Positions 39,350 to 59,550 of a stretch of DNA of 64,000 nt are shown one piece after another (position 1 is the stretch's first letter; each line of letters starts with the position of its first letter). The stretch comes from Actinomycetota bacterium (GTDB lineage: Bacteria > Actinomycetota > Thermoleophilia > Solirubrobacterales > 70-9). The notes below the pieces were generated by a model. It ran no database searches, had not been told where the DNA came from, and saw only the letters and a list, made by a program, of their open reading frames with translations. The DNA is taken from assembly GCA_018268675.1 (NCBI GenBank), contig JAFDWB010000084.1, forward strand, positions 124,001-188,000. The letters are read 5' to 3'. The translations under genes were made by a program, and so were the position numbers.

Positions 39350-39630
39350 GAAAGGTCCTCCTTGCTCGAGCGCGTCCTCCCCAGGATCGGCCTCACTTCT
39401 ACGCGGGACGTGCGCGAGCCTCCCAGACCGCGACCCCTCGGTCAACCACCGGGGGAGGTCGCCGGCCTGGCCCAGCGCGAAGCGGGAGCGACGGGACTCG
39501 AACCCGCCAAAGAAACCCGATTGAGATCCGAGGGTAGGACCGCCGCCTTCCTGAGGCCGACACTCGTTTGCGCGGGTGCACCGGTCGTCTGTTTTCAGGC
39601 GTTACCCCGGAATTGAAAGCGACTGCCTTG
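39350..39630. other. Left boundary region of the putative island
   Basis: This 281-bp gap contains the 27-bp tRNA-Asp 3'-end repeat at 39481-39507 and otherwise no gene. The remaining 5' half of a tRNA is absent: no matching acceptor strand is found within 100 bp on either side. Confidence 0.5.
39481..39507 (-). repeat. tRNA-Asp 3'-end fragment, candidate left attachment site
   Basis: These 27 bases are identical, in the same orientation, to 59488-59514. Read on the minus strand they form the T-arm GCGGGTTCGAGTCCCGT and the acceptor 3' strand CGCTCCC of a tRNA. The sequence upstream does not continue as tRNA, so this is a fragment and not a gene. Such fragments mark integration at a tRNA 3' end. 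Confidence 0.7.
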
Positions 39631-41028
39631 CTAGCTCTCGGTGAGTGCGACCGCCTGCATGTTGACGAAGGCGCGGATGCCGAATTCGCCCCCGAGCTCC
39701 CGCCCGATGCCGCTCCGCTTCACCCCGCCGAAGGGGATCCGCGGGTCCGAGGCGGTCATCGCGTTGACGAACACCATGCCCGCTTCGATGTCGGCGCTGA
39801 GCTTCTCGGCGCGCTCCAGGTCTTCGGTCCAGAGGCTCGAGCCGAGCCCGAACTCCGATTCGTTCGCCAGCTCGATCGCCGCCGCCTCGTCGGGCACGCG
39901 GACGACCGCGGCGACCGGGCCGAAGGTCTCTTCGCGCAGCACCGAGGCGTCGGAGTCGGCGGTGGCGCTGACCACGGTCGCCTCGTACCAGGCGCCCGGT
40001 TCGTCGGGGGCCTTGCCGCCGGTGAGGATGCGGGCGCCGGCCGACTCGGAGGCGCGGACGATCCCGGCGAGCTCGTCGCGCAGATCCTCTCGCGCCATCG
40101 GACCGAGCTGGGTCTCGGGATCGGTCGGTGCGCCGCGGCGCAGGCTCTTCGCCGCCGCGGCGAAGCGCTCCTCGAACTCCTCGGCGATCGACTCGACGAC
40201 GATGAAGCGCTTGGCGGCGATGCAGCTCTGGCCGGTGTTCTGGAAGCGCGCGGTGACGGCCGTCGCGACCGCCTTCTCGAGGTTCGCGTCGCCGAGCACG
40301 ATGAAGGGGTCGGAGCCGCCGAGCTCGAGCACGGCCGGCTTGATCGCCCGCCCGGCCGCTTCGCCGACCGAGACGCCGGCGGCGTCGGAGCCGGTCAATG
40401 AGACGCCGGCGATCCGCCGGTCGCCGATCAGCTCCGACGCTTTGCGCCCCGAGACGACGATCGTCTTGAAGACGCCCGGCGCCGCGCCGGCCCGCTCGAA
40501 GGCCTGCTCCAGCAGGAGGCCGCAGCCGGTCACGTTGGAGGCGTGCTTCAGCACGAAGGGGTTGCCCGCCGAGACGATCGGCGCCGCCGCCCGCATCGCC
40601 TGCCAGAGCGGGTAGTTCCAGGGCATGATCGCGAGGATCGGCCCGAGCGGCCGCTTGTGGACGGAGACCCGGCGGCCCTCGCCGGCGTCGATCGGTTCCG
40701 GCGCCAGGTAGCCCTCGCCGTGCGCGGCGTAGTGCTCCGCCGCCCAGGCGCACTTCTCCACTTCGGCCTCGGCTTCGGTGATCGGCTTGCCCATCTCGCG
40801 GCTGACCGTGTTCGCCAGCTCGTCCTTCATCGCCCGCAGCTCGCGGGCGACGCCGTTCAGCAGCTCCGCGCGCGCCGCCCAAGGCGCCCGCCGGTACTCC
40901 CGGAAGGCGCCGTGCGCCAGGTCCAGGGCGGCGTCGATCTGACCCTCGGAGAAGACCTCGTAGGTGCCGACTATCTCGTTGTTGGCAGGATCGATCGACT
41001 CGACCACGGCGCCTGCGGTTTGGCTCAT
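39631..41028 (-). CDS. NAD(P)-dependent aldehyde dehydrogenase (succinate-semialdehyde-DH-like)
   Basis: A 465-residue ALDH. It contains the NAD-binding MPWNYPLWQAMRAAAPIVSA region with LKHASN, LTGSDAAGVSVG, catalytic base LELGGSDPFIV, nucleophile FQNTGQSCIAAKRFIV (Cys about residue 268), DPETQLGPMA, EETFGPVAAV and C-terminal PFGGVKRSGIGRELG. The 'QNTGQSC' form is typical of the succinate-semialdehyde dehydrogenase branch. It oxidises an aldehyde to the acid. It is the last gene of the long minus-strand catabolic run and probably acts on an aldehyde released by the upstream lyase. Confidence 0.93.
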   Translation of the reverse strand: MSQTAGAVVESIDPANNEIVGTYEVFSEGQIDAALDLAHGAFREYRRAPWAARAELLNGVARELRAMKDELANTVSREMGKPITEAEAEVEKCAWAAEHYAAHGEGYLAPEPIDAGEGRRVSVHKRPLGPILAIMPWNYPLWQAMRAAAPIVSAGNPFVLKHASNVTGCGLLLEQAFERAGAAPGVFKTIVVSGRKASELIGDRRIAGVSLTGSDAAGVSVGEAAGRAIKPAVLELGGSDPFIVLGDANLEKAVATAVTARFQNTGQSCIAAKRFIVVESIAEEFEERFAAAAKSLRRGAPTDPETQLGPMAREDLRDELAGIVRASESAGARILTGGKAPDEPGAWYEATVVSATADSDASVLREETFGPVAAVVRVPDEAAAIELANESEFGLGSSLWTEDLERAEKLSADIEAGMVFVNAMTASDPRIPFGGVKRSGIGRELGGEFGIRAFVNMQAVALTES

Positions 41029-41060
41029 CGCTCATCCTCCTGACGTAGTGACTGGACGGG

Positions 41061-41405: not shown

Positions 41406-41408
41406 ACC

Positions 41409-43385
41409 TCAGGCGCCCGCTGCCGTAGACCCCGCTACCAGCTCGACGAAGTAGTCGAGGGCCTCGGGGTTGGCGAGGCTGTCGCGACTGACGACCTCCT
41501 CGGGGTCGGCGCCCATCAGGATCCGCTTCACCGGCACCTCGACCACCTTGCCGGAGAGGGTGCGGGGGACCGCGGCGATCGCGGTGACGTCGTCGGGGAC
41601 GTGGCGGGGGGAGCAGCGCTCGCGGATCGCCCGGGCCAGGGTCTTGCGCAGCTCCTCGTCCAGCTCGGCCCCCTCGCGCAGGACGACGAACAGCTCGATC
41701 ACCCCGTCGGTCCCCTCCTTCGGCAGGTCCACCACGAGGGCGTCGAGGACCTCCGGGGACCCGAGCACCGCCCGGTAGATCTCGGCGGTGCCGATGCGGA
41801 TGCCGCCGCGGTTGATGGTCGAGTCCGAGCGGCCGTGGATGATCGCCGTGCCCCGCTCGGTGATCTCGATCCAGTCGCCGTGGCGCCAGGTCCCGGGGAA
41901 CATCTCGAAGTAGGACTCGCGGTAGCGCGAGCCGTCGGGGTCGCCCCAGAGGAAGAGCGGCATCGAGGGCATCGGCTCGGTGATCACCAGCTCGCCGACC
42001 TCGCCGATGTGCGGCCGGCCCTCGGGGTCCCAGGACTCCACCTTCGCCCCCAGGCAGCGGGCCTGCAGCTCGCCGCGGTAGACCGGCAGCGTCGGCACGC
42101 CGCCGACGAAGGCGGTGCAGAGGTCGGTCCCGCCGGAGGTCGAGAAGAGCCACGTCTCCGCGCCGAGGTGCTCGTAGATCCAGTCGAAGCCCTCCGGCGC
42201 GAGCGGGCTGCCGGTCGAGCCGACCGAGCGCAGCCGGGAGAGGTCACGGCCGTTCCGCGGCTCCTCGCCGGCCTTCATGCAGGCCGAGATGTAGGCGGCG
42301 GAGGTGCCGAAGATCGTGATCTTCGCCCGCTCGGCCAGGTCCCACAGCGCGCCCATGTCGGGGAAGCCGGGGTTGCCGTCGTAGAGGACGATCGCCGCCT
42401 CGGTGAGCAGGCCGGAGACGATGAAGTTCCACATCATCCAGCCGGTCGTCGTGAACCAGAAGAGCCGGTCGCCCCTCTTCGCGTCGGTGTGGAGGTGCAT
42501 CACCTTCAGCTGCTCGACCAGGATCCCGCCCTGCCCCTGGACGATCGCCTTGGGAAGGCCGGTCGTCCCCGAGGAGTAGAGGACCCAGAGCGGGTGGTCG
42601 AAGGGGACGCGCTCGAAGGTGAGTGGAGAGCCTTCGCCGCGGGAGAGGAGATCCGACCACAGGATCGAGCCGTCCATGGTCGCCTCCGGGTCCAGGTAGG
42701 GGAGGAGCACCGTGTGCTCGAGGCTCGGCATCGCCTCCTGCAGCCGGCGGACGATCGGCCGGCGGTCGAAGTCCTTGCCGCCGTAGCGGTAGCCGTCGAC
42801 CGCGATCAGGACCTTGGGCTCGATCTGGGCGAAGCGGTCGATCAGCGAGCCGGCGCCGAAGTCGGGTGAGGCGCTCGACCAGATGGCGCCGATCGAGGCG
42901 ACGGCGAGGAAGGCGGCCGTCGCCTCGGCGATGTTCGGCAGGTAGGCGACGACGCGGTCGCCCTTCTCGACCCCCAGCGAGCGCAGGCCGCCCGCGACCG
43001 CGGCGACCTGGCGCCGCAGCTCCCCCCAGGTGATCTCGGCGAGCCCGCGCAGCTCGGAGGCGTGCAGGACCGCGACCTCGGCGTCCTCCTTGCCGGCGAA
43101 GGCGCGCTCGGCCCAGTTGACGCGGATCCCCGGGAACCACTCGGCGCCGGGCATCTCGCGGGAGGCGAGCGCCGGCCCGCGCTCGCCGTCGAACTGGACG
43201 CCGAAGTAGTCGACGATCGAGTTCCAGAAGCCCTCGAGGTCGTCGACCGACCACTGCCAGAGGTCCGGGTAGGTGGCGAACGGACCAAGCCCCCACTTGG
43301 CTTCTAGCCATCGGGTGTACTCGTTGATATTTGCCCCGGCGACCGTGTCAGAGGAAGGTCGGTACATGAGTTCGCCGCCGGTCAC
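41409..43385 (-). CDS. Acetoacetyl-CoA synthetase-like acyl-CoA ligase
   Basis: A 658-residue ANL ligase with the length and N-terminal cap typical of acetoacetate-CoA ligase (WSVDDLEGFWNSIVDYFGVQ, then WFPGIRVNWAERAF). Motifs: P-loop VLYSSGTTGLPKAIVQGQGG, the family-typical SPLAPEGFDWIYEHL and STSGGTDLCTAF, PVYRGELQARCLG, DWIEITERGTAIIHGRSDST and NRGGIRIGTAEIYRAV, and a C-terminal lysine in PRTLSGKVVEVPVKRIL. It converts a short beta-keto or related acid to the CoA ester. The GTG start abuts the upstream stop codon; an ATG at 43367 is an alternative. Its place in the run suggests that pathway carbon is released as acetoacetate or a similar acid. Confidence 0.9.
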   Translation of the reverse strand: MTGGELMYRPSSDTVAGANINEYTRWLEAKWGLGPFATYPDLWQWSVDDLEGFWNSIVDYFGVQFDGERGPALASREMPGAEWFPGIRVNWAERAFAGKEDAEVAVLHASELRGLAEITWGELRRQVAAVAGGLRSLGVEKGDRVVAYLPNIAEATAAFLAVASIGAIWSSASPDFGAGSLIDRFAQIEPKVLIAVDGYRYGGKDFDRRPIVRRLQEAMPSLEHTVLLPYLDPEATMDGSILWSDLLSRGEGSPLTFERVPFDHPLWVLYSSGTTGLPKAIVQGQGGILVEQLKVMHLHTDAKRGDRLFWFTTTGWMMWNFIVSGLLTEAAIVLYDGNPGFPDMGALWDLAERAKITIFGTSAAYISACMKAGEEPRNGRDLSRLRSVGSTGSPLAPEGFDWIYEHLGAETWLFSTSGGTDLCTAFVGGVPTLPVYRGELQARCLGAKVESWDPEGRPHIGEVGELVITEPMPSMPLFLWGDPDGSRYRESYFEMFPGTWRHGDWIEITERGTAIIHGRSDSTINRGGIRIGTAEIYRAVLGSPEVLDALVVDLPKEGTDGVIELFVVLREGAELDEELRKTLARAIRERCSPRHVPDDVTAIAAVPRTLSGKVVEVPVKRILMGADPEEVVSRDSLANPEALDYFVELVAGSTAAGA

Positions 43386-44381
43386 CTAGCTCACGAACTG
43401 TTTGCCGAAGAGCAGGTCAATCTCCCGTCCGAAGCCTTCGGCGACGGCCACCTGGACGATCGCGTCCGCCGCGACCAGATCCTGCGCGGCGGTGCCGACC
43501 GACTTGAATACGGTCAGCCCCTCGGCGGGGACCGGCCGCGAATCGGCACCGTCCGCCCACAGAGATGACAACGACCGCACTCTCGACTCGTGCCAATCGC
43601 CGGACCTACGGGCAGCGATCAAGTCGCCGGACTCCTCGGTCGAGTCCATCGTGTCGAGGACGACCAACTCCGCCCGCCCGAACGCCTTCTCGTCGAGCTC
43701 CCGCAACGAGGGCATCGTCGAGCCGATCGAATCCACGTGGGCACTCGCGGGCAGCCACTCGGCCTGGACAGCCACGGCTTCGCGGCCCATGCCGGTGTTG
43801 GTCGCGGCAAGCACCAGCGGCGCGTCGGCCGCCTCCTCGCCGGAATCGACCGCGACGATCTCGATTCCCAGTTTCCTCGCCATCTCCGCGGCGAAGCGCT
43901 CCCGTCGTTCGCGGTTCGGACTGAAGACCCTCGCTTCCCGGATCTCCGCCACGGCGCAGATCGCCTCCAAGTTGGTGCGGGCCTCCAGTCCCGATCCGAT
44001 CACCCCGATCCGCTCGGCGGACCGATGGCCCGCGATCGCCCGGTGCGCCATCGCGGTCACCGCACCGGTGCGAATCGCGGTCAGATGGCTCGCATCGAGC
44101 AGCACCCGGAGCTCACCGGACTCGATCGACCAGAGCCCGATCAGGTAGCGGACGTCGCTGGCGCGACTGGTGTTGAACACCTTGAGGCCCATCAGGTCGA
44201 GCGACTCGATCACCGCCGGCATGACCCGGAAGAACCCTTTCGGGGAGAAGGGCAGGTTCACCCGCGGCACGGTCTCGATGCCGCCCGCGGACTCGATCGC
44301 CATCGCCTTTTCGAGGTTGCCGATGATCGTCGGCATGTCCGCCGCCGAGCGGACCTCGTCGTTGTCGAGGATCAGCGTCAT
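43386..44381 (-). CDS. Ornithine cyclodeaminase / mu-crystallin family dehydrogenase
   Basis: A 331-residue NAD(P)-dependent protein: LPFSPKGFFRVMPAVIESLD, the substrate-loop KVFNTSRASDVRYLIGLWSI, LTAIRTGAVTAMAHRAIAG, the Rossmann motif IGVIGSGLEARTNLEAICAV, VFSPNRERRERFA and a late VHDSIGSTMP-like segment (AHVDSIGSTMPSLRELDEKA). Family members reduce cyclic imines, deaminate ornithine or alanine, or reduce ketimines. It starts 3 bp after the stop of the upstream lyase gene. In this cluster it may reduce an imine or keto-acid intermediate, which hints at a nitrogen-containing substrate. Confidence 0.9.
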   Translation of the reverse strand: MTLILDNDEVRSAADMPTIIGNLEKAMAIESAGGIETVPRVNLPFSPKGFFRVMPAVIESLDLMGLKVFNTSRASDVRYLIGLWSIESGELRVLLDASHLTAIRTGAVTAMAHRAIAGHRSAERIGVIGSGLEARTNLEAICAVAEIREARVFSPNRERRERFAAEMARKLGIEIVAVDSGEEAADAPLVLAATNTGMGREAVAVQAEWLPASAHVDSIGSTMPSLRELDEKAFGRAELVVLDTMDSTEESGDLIAARRSGDWHESRVRSLSSLWADGADSRPVPAEGLTVFKSVGTAAQDLVAADAIVQVAVAEGFGREIDLLFGKQFVS

Positions 44382-44384
44382 CCG

Positions 44385-45413
44385 CTAGGCCGGGTTGCGC
44401 CCGACGAAGAAGTCGGCGTCGGGATCGCCCGGGCTGCCGAGGCCGCAGCCCTGCAGCGCCGCCCGGAAAGAGCGCATCTGTTCCTCGCTCAGGCGGCCGC
44501 TGAGGGCGCTGCGGATCGGGCCGCCGTTGTAGCCGTTCAGCCACCCCTGGTATTTCCACAGCATCCGCGGCACCACGGCGGTGCCCGCGACCGCCACGCC
44601 CATGATCCGCATGTTCGCCTGGCGCGCCGGCTGCACCGACCAGTAGAGGTCCATCGCCTCCTCGTACTCGGCCTCGCCGCCGTGCAGCAGCTCGAAGATG
44701 CGGGGCACCGTCGACCCCGAGTACTCGTAGTTGGAGGTGCCGAGGAACTGCATCCCGTAGGTCTTCACCCAGGCCGGGGCGTTCATCTCGAAGGGGTCGG
44801 TGACGACCACCTCGTCGTTGAACATCTCGAACACCTGAGAGAGCCCGGCGACTCCCGGCGAGCCGATCTCGTTCTTGATCGCGACGACGTTCGGGCAGTC
44901 GTCGACGAGCCGGCGGATCAGCCGTGGGTCGAACGTGCTCGGGTGCAGCCGGCCGAAGTTCCAGAGGTGGATCGCGAAGACGAACATCCCCAGCGAGGTC
45001 GAGCCGGCGAGGCCCGTGTAGTAGTCGTAGATCTCGTCCTCGCTGGTCGGGTAGAAGCCGATCGGGAAGGACGGCAGGACGACGTCGACGCCGGCGCTCT
45101 CGGCGTACCGGATCAGGTCGACGTTGCGCTCCAGGGTCGGCTCCGAGGCCTGCAGGATGGTGAGCAGCTCGCCGTCGGCCTCGGCGACCGCGACGTCGAT
45201 GAACTCGCGCATCTCCGCGTCGGTGGTGCCGGTCTCGCCGACCAGCAGGATCCCGGCGAAGCCGTCGGCCTTCTCCTTGCGCACGTCGTGGCGGATCGCC
45301 TCGAGGTTCAGGCCGGAGTAATCGGCGGTCACCGTCGGGGCGACGCATCCCGCCGCCCCGCGGAGATGCTCCTTCGCCCACTCGCGGGCCTCACCCTTCG
45401 CGTAGCGTGCCAT
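44385..45413 (-). CDS. Dihydrodipicolinate-synthase/N-acetylneuraminate-lyase family protein
   Basis: A 342-residue (beta/alpha)8 lyase. GCVAPTVTADYSGLNLEAIR, GILLVGETGTTDAEMREFID (the G-x-x-GE-x-x-x-L-like motif), VVLPSFPIGFYPTSEDEIYD and the Schiff-base lysine in PNVVAIKNEIGSPGVAGLSQ (about residue 170) identify the class I aldolase family. The wider family includes hydratase-aldolases that split ring-cleavage products into pyruvate and an aldehyde. The dioxygenase and monooxygenase genes immediately upstream and the aldehyde dehydrogenase downstream make that role likely. Confidence 0.9.
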   Translation of the reverse strand: MARYAKGEAREWAKEHLRGAAGCVAPTVTADYSGLNLEAIRHDVRKEKADGFAGILLVGETGTTDAEMREFIDVAVAEADGELLTILQASEPTLERNVDLIRYAESAGVDVVLPSFPIGFYPTSEDEIYDYYTGLAGSTSLGMFVFAIHLWNFGRLHPSTFDPRLIRRLVDDCPNVVAIKNEIGSPGVAGLSQVFEMFNDEVVVTDPFEMNAPAWVKTYGMQFLGTSNYEYSGSTVPRIFELLHGGEAEYEEAMDLYWSVQPARQANMRIMGVAVAGTAVVPRMLWKYQGWLNGYNGGPIRSALSGRLSEEQMRSFRAALQGCGLGSPGDPDADFFVGRNPA

Positions 45414-45422: not shown

Positions 45423-46406
45423 TCAGGACGCGGCCGCGACGCCGGCCGCGGCCCGGTCCGCGGGCGGCGCGGGATCGGGCGGAAAGGCCTCGAACAAGGA
45501 GGCCGGCATCGGGTTGTTGACGAACATCTCGACCCCGCCCTGGTCGGCCGACCACTTGCGCGGCTCCCAGTCGGGCTGGTAGTTGCGGTAGCCGCCGGAG
45601 AAGACCTCGACCCGATGGCCGCCCGGCTCGCGCACGTAGAGGAAGGTGTTTTCGCCGTGCCCGTGGCGCGCCGGCCCCCACTCCACCGGGTTGCCGGACT
45701 CGCGCAGGATGTCGGCGGCGCGATGGACCTCGGCAGGCGAGTCGAGCCAGAAGGCGAAGTGGTGGGACAGCCCCGGCGGCGCCTGGGGCACGCCGACGAA
45801 GGCGATGTCGTGGGCCTGCTCGTTGCTGCTCACCTCGGCGAAAGCGACTTCCTCGCCGTCAGGCGCCATCGCGTACTCCATGAAACGCGAGCCGAGGGCA
45901 TCGCGGAAGAGGCCGACGTCCTCCATGATCTTCGGCGTGACGAAGGTGACGTGGTCGATCTGCCGGGCGGCGACGCCGACCGGCGCGAACCGCTGGACCC
46001 GGATCGGCAGGGTCGAGCGCCCCGCCTCGTCGGCCTCGTAGCGGTCGACCTCCCAGAACACCTCGTGGGCGATCCCGCCGGGCGTGCGGAAGCGGTAGGC
46101 CCGGCCGTGCCCGCGCACCGGCTCGCGCCAGCCCTCGCCGGCGCCGGCTCCCTCGAGCGCCGCGGCGGCCGACCCGAGCGCCTCCTCGCCCGCGGCGCGC
46201 CAGCCGACGTGCAGCACCTGGGGCGCCGCCGCCTCGGTGACGACGAGGCTGTGGTGGAAGTGGTCCCCCCAGCCGCGCAGGTAGACGGACTCTCCGTCGC
46301 GCTCCGTCTCATAGAGGCCGAAGACGTCGGTGAAGAACGTCGCCGACTCCTCCGGGCAGGGGCTCCCGAGCTCGACGTGGGCTAGTTGTGACAGCAGTCC
46401 GAACAC
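45423..46406 (-). CDS. Two-domain VOC protein, extradiol-dioxygenase-like
   Basis: A 327-residue protein with two vicinal-oxygen-chelate modules (about residues 5-135 and 150-280). First-half metal-ligand candidates are in LLSQLAHVELGSPCPEESAT. In the second half, ARQIDHVTFVTP, LSHHFAFWLDSPAEVHRAAD and GHRVEVFSGGYRNYQPDWEP supply the H-H-E triad expected in type I extradiol dioxygenases. GTG at 46406 is chosen because GGAGG precedes it at 7 bp. It probably cleaves a catechol-type ring produced by the upstream flavin monooxygenase. A non-dioxygenase VOC function is possible. Confidence 0.85.
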   Translation of the reverse strand: MFGLLSQLAHVELGSPCPEESATFFTDVFGLYETERDGESVYLRGWGDHFHHSLVVTEAAAPQVLHVGWRAAGEEALGSAAAALEGAGAGEGWREPVRGHGRAYRFRTPGGIAHEVFWEVDRYEADEAGRSTLPIRVQRFAPVGVAARQIDHVTFVTPKIMEDVGLFRDALGSRFMEYAMAPDGEEVAFAEVSSNEQAHDIAFVGVPQAPPGLSHHFAFWLDSPAEVHRAADILRESGNPVEWGPARHGHGENTFLYVREPGGHRVEVFSGGYRNYQPDWEPRKWSADQGGVEMFVNNPMPASLFEAFPPDPAPPADRAAAGVAAAS

Positions 46407-46440: not shown

Positions 46441-47571
46441 TCAAAATTCTTGGGCGAGGACGGCGACCGAACTGCCCATCGCCTCGGTGAACCGGGAGCC
46501 GTCGGCGTCGGCGGGGTCCATCTGCAGGGCACTCAGCCGGGCCGAGGCCTCGACGACGAATTCGCAGCGCCCGAAGCGGCGCTCCGAGTAGCGCTCGAGG
46601 CCGACGTCGATCGAGTCGGCCCGCGCCAGCTCCTCGGCGAGCGCGATCGAGTCCTCCAGGCACATCGCGCCGCCGGAGGCCAGCTGCGGGGTGGTCGTGT
46701 GGGCGGCGTCGCCGATCACCACCACCCGGCCGCGGTAGGTCGGCGCCGGGAGGAGCAGGGTCTCCATCGGGCGGTAGTCGACCTTGGCCGGATCCTCGAT
46801 CTGGTCCCGCAGTTCCCCGGCCATACCCGAGAGGTGGGTGAGGTGGCCGCGCATCAGCCCCGGCAGATCCTCCTGCGCCGGCCGCTCGGCCGAGGCCGCC
46901 GGGACGTCGCAGTACATGTAGAGCGAGTCCACGCCGATCAGCGTCAGCCCCGAGGCGGCCGGGCCGACGAAGTAGAACGCCGCGTCGGCCTCCGCCGGGC
47001 GCGGCAGGACCGCCCGGAACACCCCCTGTCGGCGGAAGACCGGCTCGATCTCGCCGACCAGCGCCGCGCGGGTCGCCGAGCGGAAGCCGTCGGCGGCGAC
47101 GAGGAGGTCATAGATCCCCTCCTCGCCGTCGCTCAGCGTCACCCTGACCCCGTCCGGGCCGTTCTCGAAATCGGCGACGAAGGCGCCGAGCTTCACCTCG
47201 ACTCCCTGCTCGTCGGCGTACTCGCCGAGGATCCGGTGCAGTTCCGGCCGCGTCATGCCGAGCATGCCGGGGAGGCCGGGTTCGGGCGGCGGCAGCGGGA
47301 TCACCTCGACCACTTCCGAATCCGGGGCGCAGATGCGGAATTCATCGACCCCGACGCCGTTCTCGAAGCAGCGCTCGAGGACGCCCATCCGGTTGAGCGC
47401 CCGCAGCGCCGGACCCATCAGGGTGATCCCGCTGCCGAGCGCGTGCCAGACCGGCTCGCGCTCGACGATCTTCGTCTCGAACCCGCGCCGGGCGAGCTCG
47501 ATCGCTGCCGAGGCGCCTGAGATGCCGCCTCCCACGACCAGGGCGTTGCGCTGCTCAGACATGCTTCTCAT
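46441..47571 (-). CDS. FAD-dependent aromatic-ring monooxygenase (PHBH-type)
   Basis: A 376-residue flavoprotein hydroxylase. It has FAD motif ALVVGGGISGASAAIELARR, the second motif LLVAADGFRSATRAALVG (DG motif) and the third FAD motif GRVVVIGDAAHTTTPQLASG with GAMCLEDSIALAEEL. This is the layout of class A monooxygenases that use NAD(P)H and O2 to hydroxylate aromatic compounds. ATG at 47571 follows GAGGGAAGGGA; an internal ATG at MSEQRN (47562) is an alternative. It sits between the transporter's binding protein and the VOC dioxygenase, consistent with the first oxidation of an imported aromatic substrate. Confidence 0.9.
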   Translation of the reverse strand: MRSMSEQRNALVVGGGISGASAAIELARRGFETKIVEREPVWHALGSGITLMGPALRALNRMGVLERCFENGVGVDEFRICAPDSEVVEVIPLPPPEPGLPGMLGMTRPELHRILGEYADEQGVEVKLGAFVADFENGPDGVRVTLSDGEEGIYDLLVAADGFRSATRAALVGEIEPVFRRQGVFRAVLPRPAEADAAFYFVGPAASGLTLIGVDSLYMYCDVPAASAERPAQEDLPGLMRGHLTHLSGMAGELRDQIEDPAKVDYRPMETLLLPAPTYRGRVVVIGDAAHTTTPQLASGGAMCLEDSIALAEELARADSIDVGLERYSERRFGRCEFVVEASARLSALQMDPADADGSRFTEAMGSSVAVLAQEF

Positions 47572-52437: not shown

Positions 52438-52467
52438 TTGCATCCAAATTACTATGTTGCCTATAAT
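52438..52467 (+). promoter_or_regulatory. Promoter of the cyclase gene, leaderless message expected
   Basis: TTGCAT (52438-52443), an 18-bp spacer and a perfect TATAAT (52462-52467) form a housekeeping-type promoter. The ATG at 52477 lies only 9 bp after the -10 box, so the transcript would start at or within a few bases of the start codon. The -35 region (TTGCATCCAAATTA) is similar to those of the transporter operon and the P450 gene. Confidence 0.7.
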
Positions 52468-52476
52468 AGCCGTCGT

Positions 52477-53283
52477 ATGAGTGAGCGCGAACGGATCGAT
52501 TTCGCCGGCAAGACCTTCGAGGTCTACGACCTCAGCCAGGTCCTTTCCAACGACACCTCGGCCTTCGAGCCCAACCCGCACTCGATCGCCTACACGACCC
52601 ACGCCGAGTCGGCGGCGAAAGAGCCGTTCGGCGTCCCGGCCGGGACCTGGCCCGACGGCGAGGCCTGGTCGATCGAGTCGGTGACGCTGACCACCCACTC
52701 CGGCACCCACGTCGACGCTCCCTACCACTACTCCTCGCGGACGAGCGCCGGCGCCCCGGCCCGGACGATCGAGGGACTGCCCTTCAGCTGGGTCATGGGG
52801 GACGCGTTCCTGCTCGAGATGATGGACGTCGACCCGGCCGCCGGGATCACCGCCGCGGACGTGCGGCGGGAGCTCGGGCGGATCGGCTACGAGCCGAAGC
52901 AGAACGACATCGCGCTGATCCGCACCGACATATCCGAGCGTTTCGGCGAACCCGGCTACGAGACGCTGCACCCCGGCATGCGCCGCGACGCGACCGCGTT
53001 CCTGGTCGAGCACGGGGTGCGGCTGATCGGCATCGACGCCTGGGGGCTCGACCGGCCGATGCGCTTCATGGTCGCCGACATCGAGGCGGGCGATCCAGAC
53101 CAGCTCTGGGAGTCCCACAAGTACGGGGCCGAGCACGAGTACGCCCAGATCGAGAAGCTCCGCGACCTCGCCTCGCTGCCGCGCCCGCACGGCTTCCAGG
53201 TGCTGGCGCTGCCGGTCGCGGTCGAGGGCGCGGGCGCCGGCTGGGCGCGGGTGGTGGCGCTGGTCGAGGTGATCGCGGACTGA
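52477..53283 (+). CDS. Cyclase-family metal-dependent hydrolase (kynurenine-formamidase-like)
   Basis: A 268-residue protein with the diagnostic metal-binding motif LTTHSGTHVDAPYHYSSR (HxGTHxDxPxH, about residue 73). Further family features are a helix around GFPF-like GLPFSWVMGDAFLLEMMDV, NDIALIRTDISERFG, and VRLIGIDAWGLDRPMRF. Members hydrolyse amides or lactams such as N-formylkynurenine or isatin. ATG at 52477 is chosen because of the promoter immediately before it. Its stop overlaps the start of the FAH-family gene (TGATG), so the two work together, probably on a ring-opened or amide intermediate. Confidence 0.88.
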   Translation: MSERERIDFAGKTFEVYDLSQVLSNDTSAFEPNPHSIAYTTHAESAAKEPFGVPAGTWPDGEAWSIESVTLTTHSGTHVDAPYHYSSRTSAGAPARTIEGLPFSWVMGDAFLLEMMDVDPAAGITAADVRRELGRIGYEPKQNDIALIRTDISERFGEPGYETLHPGMRRDATAFLVEHGVRLIGIDAWGLDRPMRFMVADIEAGDPDQLWESHKYGAEHEYAQIEKLRDLASLPRPHGFQVLALPVAVEGAGAGWARVVALVEVIAD

Positions 53284-54215
53284 TGCGCTGGGGGACCTAT
53301 CGCTCCCCGGCGGACGACACCGAGCGGGTCGGCCTGCTGGTCGACGGCCGGCTGCATGGACTCGGCGCCGGCCGGGCGCTAGTCGATCTGATCGCGGGCG
53401 GGCCCGGGCCGCTCGAGGAGGCGGCGGCGGAGGCCCGATCGGCGCCGGCCGAGGTGGTCGAGCCGACCTCGGTCGAGCTCCTGGCGCCGATCCCGCGGCC
53501 GCCTTCGGTCCGCGACTTCATGGCCTTCGAGAACCACTACGTCGACACGCGACGGGCGCTCGACCTCGAGGTCGAGCCGGTGTTCTACGAGCAGCCCTGC
53601 TTCTACTTCTCCAATCCGGCCGCGATCGTCGGGCCGCGCACCGACGTGCGCTCGGCGCCGGGCACCGCGCAGTTCGACTTCGAGCTCGAGATCGGCGTCG
53701 TGATCGGACGGCCCGGGTCGGACCTCGCGCTCGCCGAGGCGGAGCCTCACATCGCCGGCTACACGATCCTCTGCGACTGGAGCGCCCGCGACCTGCAGGC
53801 CAAGGAGGGCCCCTTCGGGACCGGCCCGGCGAAGGGCAAGGACACGGCGACCAGCCTCGGCCCGTGGCTGGTCACTCCGGAGGAGCTCGAGCCCTTCCGG
53901 GCCGAGCGCGGCTTCGACCTCGCGATGACGGCGTCGGTCAACGGCGAGCCCTACAGCGCCGGCAAGTGGAGCTCGATCTACTGGACGATCCCGCAGCTGC
54001 TGGTCTTCGCCTCGCGCGGCACCGAACTGCGCAGCGGCGACGTGATCGGCACCGGCACTGTCGGCACCGGCTCGATCCTCGAGCTCTCCGCCGTCCACGG
54101 GGCCGAGCGTTACCCCTGGCTCGCCGCCGGCGACGAGGTCCGGCTCTCGGTCGCCCACCTGGGCGCGGTCGAGGCGACGGTCCTCCCCGCCGCCCCGCTC
54201 CGGCCGCTCGCCTAG
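53283..54215 (+). CDS. Fumarylacetoacetate-hydrolase family protein
   Basis: A 310-residue FAH-family enzyme: LAPIPRPPSVRDFMAFENHY, the metal-binding acidic motif FDFELEIGVVIGRPG (two glutamates), ILCDWSARDLQAKEGPFGTG (Asp ligand), and LLVFASRGTELRSGDVIGTG with TVGTG. Such enzymes hydrolyse C-C bonds or decarboxylate/isomerise ring-fission products of aromatic catabolism. ATG overlaps the cyclase stop by one base. The gene converges with the P450 gene, whose stop overlaps its own by four bases. Confidence 0.9.
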   Translation: MRWGTYRSPADDTERVGLLVDGRLHGLGAGRALVDLIAGGPGPLEEAAAEARSAPAEVVEPTSVELLAPIPRPPSVRDFMAFENHYVDTRRALDLEVEPVFYEQPCFYFSNPAAIVGPRTDVRSAPGTAQFDFELEIGVVIGRPGSDLALAEAEPHIAGYTILCDWSARDLQAKEGPFGTGPAKGKDTATSLGPWLVTPEELEPFRAERGFDLAMTASVNGEPYSAGKWSSIYWTIPQLLVFASRGTELRSGDVIGTGTVGTGSILELSAVHGAERYPWLAAGDEVRLSVAHLGAVEATVLPAAPLRPLA

Positions 54216-55393
54216 GAGACCGACACCGGCAGGCTCTTCAGCCCGCGCACGGTGTTGTTCAGTTGGCGCACCGGCTCCCCCTCGATCTCGATCGCGGTCA
54301 CCCGCTCGACCAGGGAGGCGAAGATCGCCTCGATCTCGAGGCGCGCGAGCGCCGCGCCGGCGCAGCGGTGCACCCCGAACCCGAGGCCGAGGTGGTCGAT
54401 CGGATTGCGGGCGACGTCGAAGACGTCGGCGTCGTCCCACTTGCGCTCGTCGCGGTTGGCCGACCCGTAGACGGCCAGGACCCGGTCGCCGGCGGGAACC
54501 GTCTGTCCTTCGATCTCCTGATCGTCGGTGGCGGTGCGGGCGAACATCTGGACCGGGCTGTCGTAGCGGAGGATCTCGTTGCCGAGGCTGCGGATCAGCG
54601 ACGGGTCGGCCTTCAGCACCTGCCACTGGTCGGGATGTTCGGCGAGCAGCTGGACGCCGGTGCCGATCGCGTTGATCGTCGTGTCCATGCCGGCGGCGAC
54701 GTAGCCGCCCATCAGCGGGATGCACGACTCGGGGTCGATCTCGCCGCGGTCGGCGGCTTCGTAGACGGCGAGGCCCATGCTGCCCGGCGCCAGCCGGTCG
54801 CGGGTGGCCACTTCGCCGACGTAGGCCCACATCTCGCCGATCTTCGGCATCGCCTCTGCGGTGCGGGGATTGTCCGGACCGAACCCGTCGAAGACCGCAT
54901 TGCCCCAGTCGAGGAGCTTCTCCCGTCCTTCGTCCGGCAGGCCGATCAGGTCGGCTACGACCGAAATCGGGAAGAAGGCAGCCAGGTCCTGGACGGCGTC
55001 GAAGTCGCCTCGCTCGACCAGCGTGGCGACGAGTGCGTCGGCCTGCGTCGAGATCTGCCCGGTCAGCTTGGCGATCGCGCCTGGGGACAAGCGCTCGCTC
55101 AGGACCTTTCGCAACTGCGTGTGGTGGGGCGGATCGGAAGCCACGATCGAGCCGGCGTTGGCCGCATTCATCGCCTCGTTCATTGCGACCCCCTTCTCGG
55201 AGGTAAACCGCTCCCAATCCCGCAGAACCTCCCGAACTCCCTGGAACCGCGTCACCGCCCAGGCCTGGTTCTTCTCCAGGTAGACCGCCGGGCCCGCGTC
55301 CCGTAATTCCCTATATCGCCCGTACGGGTCGCGGACGGAGTCGTCGCTAAACAGATCGACTTCCGACGACGGTCCAGTCGCGGTGATTGCCAT
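54212..55393 (-). CDS. Cytochrome P450
   Basis: A 393-residue soluble bacterial P450. The I-helix oxygen-binding motif is YVAAGMDTTINAIGTGVQLL (A-G-x-D-T). The K-helix ExxR is in LGNEILRYDSPVQMFARTAT. The haem motif is FGFGVHRCAGAALARLEIEA with the cysteine thiolate near residue 346. P450s hydroxylate or demethylate hydrophobic substrates using electrons from a ferredoxin, but no ferredoxin or reductase gene is adjacent. Its promoter box resembles those of the catabolic operon, so it may do the first oxidation or O-demethylation of the same compound. Confidence 0.95.
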   Translation of the reverse strand: MAITATGPSSEVDLFSDDSVRDPYGRYRELRDAGPAVYLEKNQAWAVTRFQGVREVLRDWERFTSEKGVAMNEAMNAANAGSIVASDPPHHTQLRKVLSERLSPGAIAKLTGQISTQADALVATLVERGDFDAVQDLAAFFPISVVADLIGLPDEGREKLLDWGNAVFDGFGPDNPRTAEAMPKIGEMWAYVGEVATRDRLAPGSMGLAVYEAADRGEIDPESCIPLMGGYVAAGMDTTINAIGTGVQLLAEHPDQWQVLKADPSLIRSLGNEILRYDSPVQMFARTATDDQEIEGQTVPAGDRVLAVYGSANRDERKWDDADVFDVARNPIDHLGLGFGVHRCAGAALARLEIEAIFASLVERVTAIEIEGEPVRQLNNTVRGLKSLPVSVS

Positions 55394-55444
55394 CTCTCCT
55401 CCTCTTCTTCGGCCGAGCGCCGACAGTGCGTTGAACCCAGACTA

Positions 55445-55472
55445 AGAATACAAGGTGCTCAGTTATATGCAA
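55445..55472 (-). promoter_or_regulatory. Promoter of the P450 gene
   Basis: On the minus strand TTGCAT (55472-55467), a 16-bp spacer and TATTCT (55450-55445) resemble a housekeeping promoter in an AT-rich patch about 50 bp before the P450 start. The -35 region TTGCATATAACTGA partly resembles those of the cyclase and transporter promoters. Confidence 0.5.
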
Positions 55473-55830
55473 ATGTCCTACATCGATCGTCAGGGCATAG
55501 GCGGCGGCCTTCCCCCGTGCAATTGTCGGATTTGTCACACAAGGGGGACCACTTTCACGATTTCTCCATCTCTTAGGTAGATGGGCCGACTCCACGACAT
55601 CGACGAATCAGGGGGCCAGTTCGCGTCCTCGCGCCCCTGTCAGGGCAGAAGGCAATGACCGAACCGAAGCATCGAGACCCCGACCACGGTCGGCCCGACC
55701 GGACCCCGCGCAAGCGCCTAAGCACGTTTGTAGCCATCCCGGCCGCGCCGAGATACCACCTCCTCATGCTCCTTCGCGCCGACCCGGACCTTGCCGTTCG
55801 CCCCGAACCCGAACGGCAAACCGGGAGGGC

Positions 55831-55860
55831 GGAGATCCCGCGCCCGGACGCGGGATCTCC
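55831..55860. terminator. 12-bp perfect GC-rich hairpin
   Basis: GGAGATCCCGCG (55831-55842) pairs exactly with 55849-55860 around a 6-base loop. It lies in the gene-free stretch ahead of the mobility genes. A terminator or an element end is possible; no gene ends nearby. Confidence 0.45.
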
Positions 55861-56151
55861 TCGTCCGGGCCGCGCCCGACTCTCTACCCCATCGGTTGCA
55901 CTGCTGATGACGACGGATCGCTCTCCATCGTCGTTCTCTCGCCACAGGGCTCGCACCGCACCGCCCTCGCTGCCCGCTATCGCCTCCGCGCTGGCTACAC
56001 GGCGCTTCTCCGGTCACCACGGCGCCACCGGCACGGCGACCTCCTGCCGCCGCGCGATCTGCGCCCCGGCACCCCACCGACATCATCATGCGACGAACAG
56101 CGCCGCGCCCACGGACACGCCGCCGACCACGCGGCCGGCGAAGGGGACGGG

Positions 56152-57780
56152 ATGGTGAGCGGCGCGAGGGCGGCGAGGCGCGGCCCTGCGCCCTCGCGGG
56201 CGAAGACGCCGGCGCTGTCGGACCTCGACCTGCGCATCCTCTCGCTGCTCTCCCGCCACCGGGTGATGACCCAGAGCCAGCTCGCGGCGGTCAGTCCCGA
56301 GACGCCGATCCGCACCCTGAGATATCGCTGCTCTCGACTCGCCCGACAGGGTCTGCTCGGCCGGACCCGTCCCTACCGCGAACGCGGCTCGGCGCCGAAT
56401 CATCTCTGGCCGACCCGCAAGGGAGAGGCGACCGCCTGCGGCGGACCACCGCCTCGGGGCGGCGAGCGGCGGGAGCCCAACCCGCTCTTCCTCGCCCACG
56501 CCGCCGGTCTCACCGAAGTCTGGGTGGCGCTGGAGACGACCCTGCCGGATGGCGCACGGCTCGCGCGGTTCGAGCGCGAGGCCGGCGCCCGCGAGCCGTT
56601 CACCGTTCCGGCGACCCGCCGGGAACGCGCCATCGCCCCCGACGCCCTCATCGAGATCGTCGATGCCGACGAGCAGCCGCTCCTCGCCTTCGTCGAGCTC
56701 GACATGGGGACGATGTCGCACCGGCGCCTGCGGCAGAAGGCATCGGGCTACGGCGACTACGCGAAGGCCGAGGCGTGGCGCGAGCGCCATGCCTTCTGCC
56801 CCGCCCTCCTCTTCATCACCACCACCGAGGCGCGCGCCCACTCGTTCCTCACCGCGATGCGCAAGGAGACCGGCAAGGACTCCTTTCTCCTCACCTGCGC
56901 CTGCGACCTGGCGCGGCGACTCGACCGGATCGCCGACCGACCTCGCTGGCTGCCAGATCCCGAGAAGGACCACGCCGTTGACCTGCTCACCGTCCTGCAC
57001 GAGGCGAGGCGGCCCTTTGACGAGGAGCGCGAGCGCGAGGAGGCAGAGCACCGGAAGGAAGAGGCGGAGCGTGAGCGGCTGGCGTCGGACCCCGAGGCGC
57101 TCCGCGAGCACCTGCGCCGCTGGTGGGGGAGCGAGCCACGGCTCAGCGATCTGGACGAGGCGAGCGCCGGCGCCCTCGCGATCACGCTCGGGCGCAAGGA
57201 TCCTATGGCGGAGCCGGAGCGCCGGGCGCTGCTCGCGCTCGGCGCGATGCTCGGGGACCCGCTCCGGCCGCTGTCGCCGGAAGAGGAGCCGACAGCGAGA
57301 CAGCGTCGCGCTTTCGCCGACCTCGCCGAGCATCACAGGGACGAGCAGCTCGCCCGGATCGCCAGCCTGGCCCTGCGCCACGGCGAGGGGCCGGCGCTCC
57401 GCCGGGTGCGGCAACAGGTCACGGCTGGAGACCTCCTACCTCACTCGGAGATCTCCTGGCTCGAGCAGAAGGCGGTCGATGACGAGCGCTCGCGCGAGGA
57501 GCAGGAGCGCCTCGCCTCCGCCTATCTCACCTGGCGCGAAGGGGAGGCGAGGCGGCTGGCCAAGGCCCAGGGGATCGTCGCCCGGCTCGGCTCCCGACCG
57601 GAGGACTTCCTCGACGATGTCGACCGTCGCTCGCTCCGGCTCTGCCGGCGGTGTGGGGAGATCGCCTACCCCGACCCGGGACGGGCGCGGGGCGAGCGCA
57701 GACGCCCTGACGTCGCCTTCCGCTGTCACTTCTGCGGCGCCACGGCCCTCGCCGAGATCGACAGCGAGGCCCGGCCGTGA
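56152..57780 (+). CDS. Replication-relaxation family protein of a mobile element
   Basis: A 542-residue protein. An N-terminal winged helix (ALSDLDLRILSLLSRHRVMT, QSQLAAVSPETPIRTLRYRC) precedes a nuclease-like region (GLTEVWVALETTLPDGARLA, PDALIEIVDADEQPLLAFVE, LDMGTMSHRRLRQKASGYGD). This matches the Replic_Relax family found on actinobacterial integrative and conjugative elements and plasmids, where it is thought to act in replication or transfer initiation. A charged helical region follows (about 290-470). The C-terminus has a CxxC...CxxC zinc-finger-like module (LCRRCGEIAYPD and FRCHFCGAT). It overlaps a small gene and is followed by the serine recombinase. Confidence 0.82.
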   Translation: MVSGARAARRGPAPSRAKTPALSDLDLRILSLLSRHRVMTQSQLAAVSPETPIRTLRYRCSRLARQGLLGRTRPYRERGSAPNHLWPTRKGEATACGGPPPRGGERREPNPLFLAHAAGLTEVWVALETTLPDGARLARFEREAGAREPFTVPATRRERAIAPDALIEIVDADEQPLLAFVELDMGTMSHRRLRQKASGYGDYAKAEAWRERHAFCPALLFITTTEARAHSFLTAMRKETGKDSFLLTCACDLARRLDRIADRPRWLPDPEKDHAVDLLTVLHEARRPFDEEREREEAEHRKEEAERERLASDPEALREHLRRWWGSEPRLSDLDEASAGALAITLGRKDPMAEPERRALLALGAMLGDPLRPLSPEEEPTARQRRAFADLAEHHRDEQLARIASLALRHGEGPALRRVRQQVTAGDLLPHSEISWLEQKAVDDERSREEQERLASAYLTWREGEARRLAKAQGIVARLGSRPEDFLDDVDRRSLRLCRRCGEIAYPDPGRARGERRRPDVAFRCHFCGATALAEIDSEARP

Positions 57781-58025
57781 TCTCGATGAGCGGCGGCGCG
57801 AGGTCGCGCCGGGCCGGTCACGAGCCCTTGAGATCCTCGGCTCCCCGAGCTAGACGTATGGATGCAGCCGCGCGGGCCCGGATGCCGGACGCGCGGCGAC
57901 GGAACGGACGAGAAGGAGGCGGAGATGGCGAAGAGGGCGGGCTGCATCCAGAGGTCGAGGCGTTCGCAGCCTGGTTCTGCGACTGGTGGCTACGACGCGG
58001 GAGGGGAGATGACGGAGGCGACTGA
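57777..58025 (+). CDS. Small protein between relaxase-like and recombinase genes, uncertain
   Basis: An 82-residue frame starting at a GTG that overlaps the stop of the replication-relaxation gene (GTGA) and ending 17 bp inside the serine recombinase. The first half is Arg/Ala-rich and may be untranslated. The C-terminal part (GGLHPEVEAFAAWFCDWWLR) looks like a real amphipathic helix. The close packing favours a real small gene, but no family is recognised. Confidence 0.4.
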   Translation: MISMSGGARSRRAGHEPLRSSAPRARRMDAAARARMPDARRRNGREGGGDGEEGGLHPEVEAFAAWFCDWWLRRGRGDDGGD

Positions 58026-59550
58026 GGCCCGGCGGCCCCGGGCCGCCGCATACGTGCGCGAGTCGACCGAGGAGCAGGGACAGGGCTTTTCACCCGACGC
58101 CCAGCGCGAGGCGATCCGCCGCTTCGCCGAGGAGAACGACCTCGACCTGGTCGCCGAGTATTCGGACTTCCACTCCGGCTGGAAGAAGGCCGACGCCCGG
58201 CCCCATTTCCAGCGGCTGATGGCCGACGCCGCCGAGCGACGCTTCGAGGTTGTCCTCGTCTACCACACCTCCCGATTCGCCCGGAACCAGGCCGAGTCGC
58301 GCCGCTACAAGCAGCTCCTGCGGGAGCGGCTCGGCATCCGGGTGGTCTCCGTCACCCAGCCGATGGGCGAGGACCCGACCGATCCCTCCGCCTTCCTCGC
58401 CGAGTCGATCCACGAGATGTTCGACGAGTACTACTCGGTCTCGCTCTCCTTCTGGACCCGCACCGGCCTGCGCGAGAAGGCGCGCCAGGGTCACCTCGTC
58501 GGCAATCTTCCCTGGGGATACTGTCGCGACCCGGACTCGGGCATCGCCGTCCGCGACCCGGAGCGGGCGCCGCTGGTGCGCGAGCTGTTCGAGCGCTATG
58601 CGACCGGGCAGGAGTCCGACCGATCGACGGCCGCCTGGCTGAACGCCAAGGGCGCCCGCACCAACCGCGGCCGGGCCTTCGGCAAGGACACCGTCCGCGA
58701 CATGCTGCTGAACTCCGCCTACTGCGGCTATATCGGCGGCCTACGGAGCAAGGACCGCTCGATCAGGGGGCTGCACGAGCCGCTCGTCTCCGAGGAGCTC
58801 TTCGACCGGGTCCAGGAGGTACGGTCCTGGCGGACCCGGGTGGTCAAGCCGGGTCGGCCGTCCGAGGATTACCTCCTGCGAAAGCTCCTTTACTGCGAGC
58901 GCTGCGGCGCGCGGATGCACGGCAACAGGGGATCCACCGGGAGGATCCGCCGCTACCACTGCTCGACGCGGCGCCACGGCGAGGGCTGCGATCAGCCTCT
59001 GGCCCACGCCGAGCCGCTGGAGGAGCAGATCGTCGACTGGCTGCGCGGCTTCCAGCCCGACGCCGAACTGCGGACCGTCGTCCTCGCCACGCTGCGAGAA
59101 GCGGCGGCGCAGGCAAATGGGGGCGCCTCCCGGCGGCGCGACCTCGACGGCCAACTGGAGCGACTGCGCGACCTCTACGTGATGGGCGACGTGACGAAGG
59201 ACGAATACACGCTGCGGCGGCAATCCCTGGAGGAAGAGCTCGAGCGGATCGGCCCGCCTCTCGATCCGCAACTCGACCGGGCAGAGGCGGTCCTCCGGGA
59301 CTTCTCCAAGTTCTGGGACGCCGAGCCCAAGGCCGCCGAGCGCCGCAAGCTGATCGCCTCGCTGTTCGACCGCGTATGGGAGGACGAAGGGAAAATCGTC
59401 GCCGTCAAACCGCGCGAGCCCTTCCTGCGCTACTTCAAGGCCTCCGAGGACCTGGCTCGGGCCGGGAGCACCGAGGCAGGTTTCAATAGCGGGAGCGACG
59501 GGACTCGAACCCGCGACCTCCGGCGTGACAGGAGCCCCAATGGATCGTAG
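58009..59550 (+). CDS. Large serine recombinase / site-specific integrase
   Basis: A 513-residue large serine recombinase. The resolvase domain (residues about 10-150) begins RAAAYVRESTEEQGQGFSPD with the catalytic serine in YVRES, followed by the SRFARNQAESRRYKQLL helix. The recombinase domain (about 185-290) has GNLPWGYCRDPDSG and AWLNAKGARTNRGRAFGKDT. The zinc-ribbon domain has LLYCERCGARMHG and CSTRRHGEGCDQ, then a coiled-coil-like helix (about 400-470). ATG at 58009 follows GAGGGGAG. The last ~20 residues (SGSDGTRTRDLRRDR) are translated from the tRNA-Asp 3' fragment, so the gene's end overlaps the right attachment site. It is the likely integrase of the 20-kb island. Confidence 0.9.
   Translation: MTEATEARRPRAAAYVRESTEEQGQGFSPDAQREAIRRFAEENDLDLVAEYSDFHSGWKKADARPHFQRLMADAAERRFEVVLVYHTSRFARNQAESRRYKQLLRERLGIRVVSVTQPMGEDPTDPSAFLAESIHEMFDEYYSVSLSFWTRTGLREKARQGHLVGNLPWGYCRDPDSGIAVRDPERAPLVRELFERYATGQESDRSTAAWLNAKGARTNRGRAFGKDTVRDMLLNSAYCGYIGGLRSKDRSIRGLHEPLVSEELFDRVQEVRSWRTRVVKPGRPSEDYLLRKLLYCERCGARMHGNRGSTGRIRRYHCSTRRHGEGCDQPLAHAEPLEEQIVDWLRGFQPDAELRTVVLATLREAAAQANGGASRRRDLDGQLERLRDLYVMGDVTKDEYTLRRQSLEEELERIGPPLDPQLDRAEAVLRDFSKFWDAEPKAAERRKLIASLFDRVWEDEGKIVAVKPREPFLRYFKASEDLARAGSTEAGFNSGSDGTRTRDLRRDRSPNGS
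59488..59531 (-). repeat. tRNA-Asp 3'-half fragment, candidate right attachment site
   Basis: On the minus strand this reads CTGTCAC (a tRNA-Asp anticodon loop, anticodon GTC), then the 3' anticodon stem, variable loop, T-arm and acceptor strand, ending CGCTCCCG. The 5' side of the anticodon stem does not pair and the 5' half is missing, so it is an attachment-site copy and not a tRNA gene. Bases 59488-59514 are identical to 39481-39507. Confidence 0.75.

What the first reader, a model, noticed from the sequence alone, without database searches (positions are those of the whole stretch)
39481..59531. A 20-kb putative catabolic island bounded by direct repeats of a tRNA-Asp 3' end
Bases 39481-39507 and 59488-59514 are identical, in the same orientation, and correspond to the T-arm and acceptor strand of tRNA-Asp. 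The right copy extends to the anticodon loop. Neither is part of a complete tRNA. Between them lie the whole importer/oxidation cluster, a replication-relaxation protein and a serine recombinase whose reading frame runs into the right repeat. This looks like an integrative element carrying a catabolic pathway. The fragments' orientation predicts the intact tRNA-Asp gene to the right of the window.
Basis: partly seen in the sequence, partly recalled or inferred. Interest (0 to 1): 0.75.

Follow-up and report, generated by a model that had tools for sequence, protein, structure and literature searches.

The report
tRNA-Asp islands that split their recombinase
The 20-kb stretch is a real mobile island that inserted at the end of a tRNA-Asp gene and carries a degradation pathway; it belongs to a newly recognised family of islands whose insertion enzyme gene is cut in two by the act of inserting, which suggests a built-in switch that can be tested.

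Summary
Confirmed and extended. The 27-bp repeats at 39481-39507 and 59488-59514 are exact and not chance. The predicted intact tRNA-Asp lies to the right, at contig position 270645-270719. The 20-kb unit (A) has a sibling (B, 32 kb) on the same contig: shared 4-kb right module (Replic_Relax plus large serine recombinase, 86.8% nt) and left end, different catabolic cargo. Two same-genus genomes have only ~3.7 kb where this genome has ~145-150 kb, so A is one unit of a stack; a tyrosine-integrase island with nitrate-respiration genes lies between A and B. Relatives in Thermoleophilia end at tRNA-Asp too; two carry defence systems (Iet, Lamassu) instead. New point: joining right to left end, as in the excised circle, makes the recombinase frame read through the repeat into the left arm and end in a conserved (I/V)EIRx-stop tail. 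In 26 of 35 left ends the stop falls 0-1 residues after EIR (about 1 expected). Integration therefore splits the recombinase gene and replaces its C-terminus with antisense-tRNA code. Serine-recombinase targeting of tRNA genes is rare; the split tail is, as far as I found, undescribed. Current mobility and any effect of the tail are untested.

The parts
39481..39507 (-). Left end (L1): 27-bp core = tRNA-Asp 3' end (tRNA sense on - strand); minimal 13-bp core shared by the whole family is 39483-39495 (CGGGAGCGACGGG)
   Evidence: 13-bp core from G156, G155, G177 and L142 ends
39508..39537 (+). Left arm: codes QRNP-IEIRG-stop, the recombinase C-terminus used when the element is circular; orphaned in the integrated state
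39631..41028 (-). Aldehyde dehydrogenase (cargo)
   Evidence: Pfam Aldedh 5e-130
41409..43385 (-). Acetoacetate-CoA ligase (cargo)
   Evidence: TIGR01217 823.9 bits, above cut-off 520.9
43386..44381 (-). Ornithine cyclodeaminase/mu-crystallin family protein (cargo)
44385..45413 (-). DHDPS-family aldolase/lyase (cargo)
45423..46406 (-). Extradiol (catechol 2,3-dioxygenase-like) dioxygenase (cargo)
   Evidence: TIGR03211 246.7 bits, below cut-off 320
46441..47562 (-). FAD-dependent monooxygenase (cargo)
47581..48750 (-). ABC importer substrate-binding protein (cargo)
48771..50318 (-). ABC importer ATPase (cargo)
50315..51343 (-). ABC importer permease (cargo)
51600..52436 (-). GntR/FCD regulator (cargo)
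52438..53283 (+). Cyclase-family hydrolase (cargo)
53283..54215 (+). Fumarylacetoacetate hydrolase family protein (cargo)
54212..55393 (-). Cytochrome P450 (cargo)
56152..57780 (+). Replication-relaxation protein (PF13814), part of the right-end module
   Evidence: module 55522-59532 is 86.8% identical in element B
58009..59550 (+). Large serine recombinase (Resolvase + Recombinase + zinc ribbon); integrated-form tail DLRRDRSPNGS comes from the tRNA fragment and beyond
59488..59532 (-). Right end (R1): 45-bp tRNA-Asp 3' half; first 27 bp are the core of element A, right edge in the anticodon loop is best read as the left end of the neighbouring tyrosine-integrase element
59732..61042 (+). Tyrosine integrase of the neighbouring element C (not part of A)
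   Evidence: same fragment-200 bp-integrase layout in G046:C4

Best explanation
Window 39481-59514 is an integrative element (A, 20,034 bp). A large serine recombinase inserts it at the 3' end of the tRNA-Asp gene, within a conserved 13-bp core (CGGGAGCGACGGG) near the tRNA 3' end; the element's copy of the sequence restores the tRNA. Cargo sits between a constant right module (Replic_Relax + recombinase) and a short constant left end and differs from element to element. Repeated insertion at the same tRNA, together with a tyrosine-integrase element that uses the same tRNA, built the stack of about 145-150 kb. The recombinase gene spans the attachment site: in the circle it ends in ...(I/V)EIRx-stop; integration leaves that tail code at the far left end and gives the gene a new 3' end read from antisense tRNA. 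Shown from sequence: ends, sibling, intact tRNA, island-free relatives, family, in-frame conserved tail. Inferred: recombinase chemistry, exact crossover, order of insertions, present-day mobility, any regulatory effect of the tail, the pathway's substrate (probably an aromatic compound by meta-cleavage).
For: Exact repeats and intact tRNA-Asp on the predicted side. Sibling B with 4,017-bp right module at 86.8% and left end at 84.6%, interiors different. Two same-genus genomes colinear on both sides with only 3.6-3.8 kb between the flanks. Order-wide relatives of the recombinase lie at tRNA-Asp. In six elements with both ends known the EIR motif is in frame when the ends are joined, despite different spacings. 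Two natural uninterrupted junctions read in frame into IEIR (L142; G156 left junction). Motif search: hits in 18 of 232 order genomes, reversed control pattern none (again). Stop 0-1 residues after EIR in 26 of 35, expected 1.1, other frames 0 and 1. Cargo swaps: Iet and Lamassu in relatives.
Against: No excised circle, no read data and no experiment. No relative shows an exact empty site for A alone: the sequence left of L1 was not found next to a tRNA-Asp elsewhere; the island-free comparison is for the whole stack. Base composition of A is unremarkable. The one natural uninterrupted recombinase-plus-tail found nearly whole (L142) is frameshifted. The 35 left ends are related, so the binomial figure overstates independence.
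Confidence: 0.9

Rival explanations
1. The IEIR motif in the left arm is only a DNA-binding half-site of attP; its reading frame is incidental.
For: It lies next to the crossover, where serine integrases bind about 25 bp on each side (established knowledge); the DNA itself is conserved.
Against: In the first ten arms differences fall at third codon positions except one conservative I to V; stop codon at a fixed codon distance in 26 of 35 with all three stop codons used; in frame 6 of 6 although core-to-motif spacing is 37 to 42 nt. It may be both.
Confidence: 0.12
2. One large element of about 107 kb runs from L1 to the intact tRNA, and R1 and L2 are internal relics.
For: All four repeats are in the same orientation on one contig.
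Against: A and B each have a complete pair of ends, and the middle segment has its own tyrosine integrase next to a tRNA fragment cut at the anticodon loop, a layout seen separately in G046.
Confidence: 0.06
3. A was inserted as proposed but is now immobile, fixed by its neighbours.
For: Its right repeat is only a 45-bp tRNA fragment; many relatives are decayed remnants of 1-10 kb.
Against: Recombinase frame is open with its motifs intact, both 27-bp cores are identical, and the orphan tail code is preserved.
Confidence: 0.35
4. The repeats are debris of tRNA duplications and the catabolic genes are resident chromosome.
For: tRNA fragments are common in this family's genomes.
Against: Island-free colinear relatives, sibling element with the same ends, reciprocal end structure with the recombinase tail.
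Confidence: 0.02

Closest known systems
Dehalococcoides ssrA genomic islands (McMurdie et al. 2011, PMC3146451)
   Same: Tandem islands with respiratory/catabolic cargo at one small-RNA gene, bounded by short direct repeats; CcrB-like large serine recombinase whose 3' end overlaps the attachment site. The authors noted that its stop codon is unclear and that it may be fully functional only on the circular element.
   Different: Target is tmRNA, not tRNA-Asp; module has a second small serine recombinase (DsiA), ParB, Mom and others, absent here; no conserved circle-form tail was reported there.
Mycobacterium AICEs with serine recombinase in tRNA-Leu (Ghinet et al. 2011, PMC3218068)
   Same: Actinobacterial element, serine recombinase, tRNA target; the paper calls this combination rare.
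   Different: AICEs carry replication and TraB-type conjugation genes; no conjugation gene in element A. Different tRNA.
Filamentous phage phiRSM (PMC3816273)
   Same: Serine recombinase, 13-nt core identical to a tRNA 3' end in reverse orientation.
   Different: Phage with a small resolvase-type enzyme; attP lies between two ORFs, not inside the recombinase gene.
Mycobacteriophage BPs integration-dependent immunity (PMC4557955)
   Same: Attachment site inside a reading frame, so integration changes a protein's C-terminus.
   Different: The altered protein is the repressor; enzyme is a tyrosine integrase (own knowledge); it is a phage.
SCC elements with CcrA/CcrB recombinases
   Same: Large serine recombinase; best NCBIfam profile for our protein is CcrB (4.8e-32).
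   Different: Score 111 against a cut-off of 900; target and gene content differ.

Membership tests
tRNA-integrated genomic island (Islander definition, PMC4383910) | Intact tRNA gene and displaced tRNA fragment in the same orientation flank the island | tested here: met
   (via B for the intact tRNA; A lies between two fragments of the same stack)
tRNA-integrated genomic island (Islander definition, PMC4383910) | Integrase of the tyrosine family inside the island | tested here: not met
   A and B carry a serine recombinase; the only tyrosine integrase of the stack is outside A and B
Large serine recombinase | Resolvase, Recombinase and zinc-ribbon domains in order | tested here: met
   (1.4e-26, 2.9e-18, 3.4e-12)
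AICE / ICE | Conjugation genes (TraB/FtsK-type or relaxase plus type IV secretion) | tested here: not met
   No such domain among the 15 proteins of A
Integrative mobilizable element | Relaxase or origin of transfer | tested here: inconclusive
   Only the Replic_Relax protein; weak PHROG match to replication initiation by nicking, 2e-12
Dehalococcoides-type ssrA island | Insertion at ssrA with DsiB + DsiA + ParB + Mom module | tested here: not met
   Target is tRNA-Asp; module is Replic_Relax + one recombinase. Works like it, is not a member.
Proposed new family (tRNA-Asp split-recombinase elements) | Core CGGGAGCGACGGG at both ends, left arm coding (I/V)EIRx-stop in frame with the recombinase at the right end | tested here: met
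Prophage / viral element | Structural or packaging genes; relatives in virus collections | tested here: not met
   No phage structural domain in A; no relative in IMG/VR; best phage hits about 30-35% identity

The most novel reading that the evidence does not exclude
Integration works as its own switch: the recombinase made from the circle (EIRx tail) and the one made after insertion (antisense-tRNA tail) differ in activity, so splitting the gene at the tRNA sets the direction of the reaction or silences the enzyme, and insertion of a further copy in tandem restores the original C-terminus.
Probability: 0.3. Interest if true: 0.8.

Novelty: new variant of a known kind. Interest (0 to 1): 0.62.

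Why it matters
Serine recombinases are reported to target tRNA genes only rarely, and one database paper states they are not known to. Here is a family across Thermoleophilia that does so repeatedly at one tRNA and carries catabolic or defence cargo. The split tail bears on a question left open in 2011 for the Dehalococcoides islands, namely where the recombinase gene really ends and whether it is whole only on the circle, and it makes that directly testable. The left-end motif also gives a precise way to delimit such islands, and tRNA-targeting serine integrases are of use as insertion tools.

Tried and rejected
tblastx between the stack and the relatives gave grouped noise and was ignored. 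Base composition does not mark A as foreign; only the middle and the left part of the stack deviate. An exact empty site for A alone was sought with its left flank and not found. The right end of the middle element was sought in relatives; only short flank matches at left ends were seen, so its right boundary is not settled. Relatives in IMG/VR: none. Plasmids and phages: only distant hits. Considered and rejected: prophage, AICE, SCC. Replic_Relax as a universal part was rejected: found in A, B, G155 and G177 but not in G082. L142 as an excised circle was rejected: no terminal repeat, frameshifted recombinase.
Full report
Observation. There is no tRNA in the window. The window is C82:124001-188000 of a 4.2-Mb, 95-contig assembly. 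I rebuilt contig C82 (353,980 bp) from stretches. It holds one tRNA, an intact tRNA-Asp, at complement 270645-270719, on the predicted side. In the family search no second full-length tRNA-Asp match was listed for this genome. The 27-mer is found exactly at 163481, 183488 and 270644 and with one mismatch at 238598; the next best match has 7 mismatches.

A sibling element. Region A (163481-183514, window 39481-59514) and region B (238598-270670) share 4,017 bp at the right end (86.8%, window 55522-59532: Replic_Relax, serine recombinase, tRNA end) and 65 bp at the left end (84.6%), while the interiors differ apart from some homologous genes. The two recombinases are 93% identical. B ends at the intact tRNA. 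This is the signature of two insertions of related elements at one attachment site.

Island-free relatives. In two same-genus genomes (G033, G041) the genes on both sides of our stack are colinear with C82 over tens of kilobases, and only 3.6-3.8 kb separates the left flank from tRNA-Asp. By nucleotide match the shared left flank reaches C82 120,724, with one further short match at 125,886-126,033. So about 145-150 kb, including the window from about position 2,034 on, is extra DNA at the 3' side of tRNA-Asp in this genome.

What lies between A and B. A tyrosine integrase starts about 200 bp right of the R1 fragment and is the only one in the stack. G046 has a homolog (65%) in the same layout beside a 44-bp tRNA-Asp fragment. 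Many genomes of the family have 43-53-bp tRNA-Asp fragments cut at or near the anticodon loop. R1 is therefore best read as the right end of A fused to the left end of a tyrosine-integrase element C that carries nitrate/nitrite genes (NarG/NarH, nitrite or sulfite reductase, chlorite dismutase family, glutamate synthase). Its right boundary is not settled.

Cargo. A: catechol 2,3-dioxygenase-like enzyme, FAD monooxygenase, aldehyde dehydrogenase, FAH-family hydrolase, DHDPS-family lyase, acetoacetate-CoA ligase (above curated cut-off), importer, regulator, P450. From known pathways this fits meta-cleavage of an aromatic compound; the substrate is not known. B: molybdenum hydroxylase, Rieske oxygenase, extradiol dioxygenase, hydantoinase and others. 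A and B both have ALDH, DHDPS-like, OCD and extradiol dioxygenase genes.

The family. Recombinase relatives at E below 1e-80 were found in 6 of 232 genomes of the order (own genome included), 8 of 399 of a class sample and only in the class within a phylum sample. Named records are Solirubrobacterales and Actinomycetota MAGs and Patulibacter medicamentivorans I11. Those in G045, G082, G155, G156, G177 and G234 lie beside an intact tRNA-Asp. Sizes with both ends: 4.8 kb (G156), 5.9 kb (G234), 6.4 kb (G082), 9.3 kb (G155), 11.5 kb (G177), 20 and 32 kb (A, B). G082 carries IetA/IetS and G177 carries LmuA/LmuB (Lamassu) by PADLOC profiles. The end sequences shrink the shared core to 13 bp, CGGGAGCGACGGG; to its right the left ends of G156, G155 and G177 and the natural junction in L142 depart from the tRNA sequence.

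The split recombinase gene. In the integrated state of A, B, G177, G156 and G234 the recombinase frame runs into the tRNA and ends in antisense-tRNA code such as DLRRDRPAL. When the right end is joined to the left end, as in the excised circle, the frame passes the core and ends in: A QRNP-IEIRG, B ERNLG-IEIRE, G082 VTPR-IEIRL, G177 VEIRV, G234 IEIR, all followed by a stop; G156 has IEIR in frame but runs on. G082 reads the core in another frame than the rest and still arrives at IEIRL-stop. Motif spacing from the core is 37, 39, 41 or 42 nt, yet it is in frame in 6 of 6. Base differences in the four motif codons of the first ten arms are at third positions, save one I to V. Natural uninterrupted forms exist: L142 reads SGSDGASTRERHHIEIRC-stop (recombinase frameshifted further up), and the G156 left junction is contiguous with an upstream recombinase remnant in frame.

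Independent test. The pattern core-15 to 32 nt-TYGAGATYCG was sought without using the stop codon. It hits 18 of 232 genomes of the order and 21 of 399 of the class sample; the reversed control pattern hits none. Of 35 distinct hits, 26 have a stop 0 or 1 residues after EIR; 1.1 expected at the local stop frequency of 1.6% per codon; the other two frames give 0 and 1. The copies are related, so the formal probability (6e-32) should not be taken literally. Further hits lie a short way left of tRNA-Asp in the expected orientation in G086, G059, G080, G047 and G359.

Reading. The left arm is the detached 3' end of the recombinase gene. This ties L1 and R1 together as two halves of one attachment site and is the strongest evidence for the boundaries. 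Its upkeep suggests that selection has seen the circular or tandem state. That the tail swap matters for activity is a hypothesis.

Literature. Serine-recombinase integration into tRNA genes is called rare (PMC3218068); [quoted passage not shown] The ssrA islands of Dehalococcoides are the nearest analogue, and there the unclear stop codon and possible function on the circle only were noted as open (PMC3146451). Attachment sites within other genes that change a C-terminus are known from phages (PMC4557955). My literature search was limited to open-licence papers, so earlier description of this family cannot be excluded.

Limits.

Noticed in passing
window 59533-64000 and on to C82:238597: Tyrosine-integrase element C with nitrate/nitrite and nitrogen-assimilation genes (NarG, NarH, nitrite/sulfite reductase, hemerythrin ScdA, chlorite dismutase family, haem-copper oxidase/NO-reductase-like subunit, glutamate synthase), later transaldolase, MetE and ATP synthase subunit a; tetranucleotide usage departs from the core.
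   Followed up: partly
window 2034-39480 (C82:126034-163480): About 37 kb left of element A is also absent between the flanks in G033 and G041 and has deviating tetranucleotide usage, but no tRNA fragment or integrase marks its left edge; probably an older eroded insertion.
   Followed up: partly
L103, L104, L107, L102, L100: Many genomes of the family hold 43-53-bp tRNA-Asp fragments cut near the anticodon loop; three (L102, L104, L107) share the sequence to their right, pointing to a further family of tyrosine-type elements at the same tRNA.
   Followed up: partly
L204/L205 (G086:C1 near 5,570,000) and L208 (G080:C1): A distant serine recombinase (about 27% identity) whose reading frame runs into or up to a tRNA-Met gene, so the recombinase/tRNA overlap may exist for other tRNAs.
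   Followed up: partly
L144:5855-7438, L145:10001-11605: Candidate-phyla recombinases (about 34% identity) whose frames run into tRNA-His and tRNA-Arg genes.
   Followed up: partly
L162 (G234), L213 (G154), L221 (G359): Three or four cores in one locus: further stacks of elements at tRNA-Asp.
   Followed up: no
L099:9597-10350 (G042:C159): A 0.7-kb remnant with both serine-element ends, left arm coding IEIRL-stop, beside an XdhC gene like that of element B.
   Followed up: no
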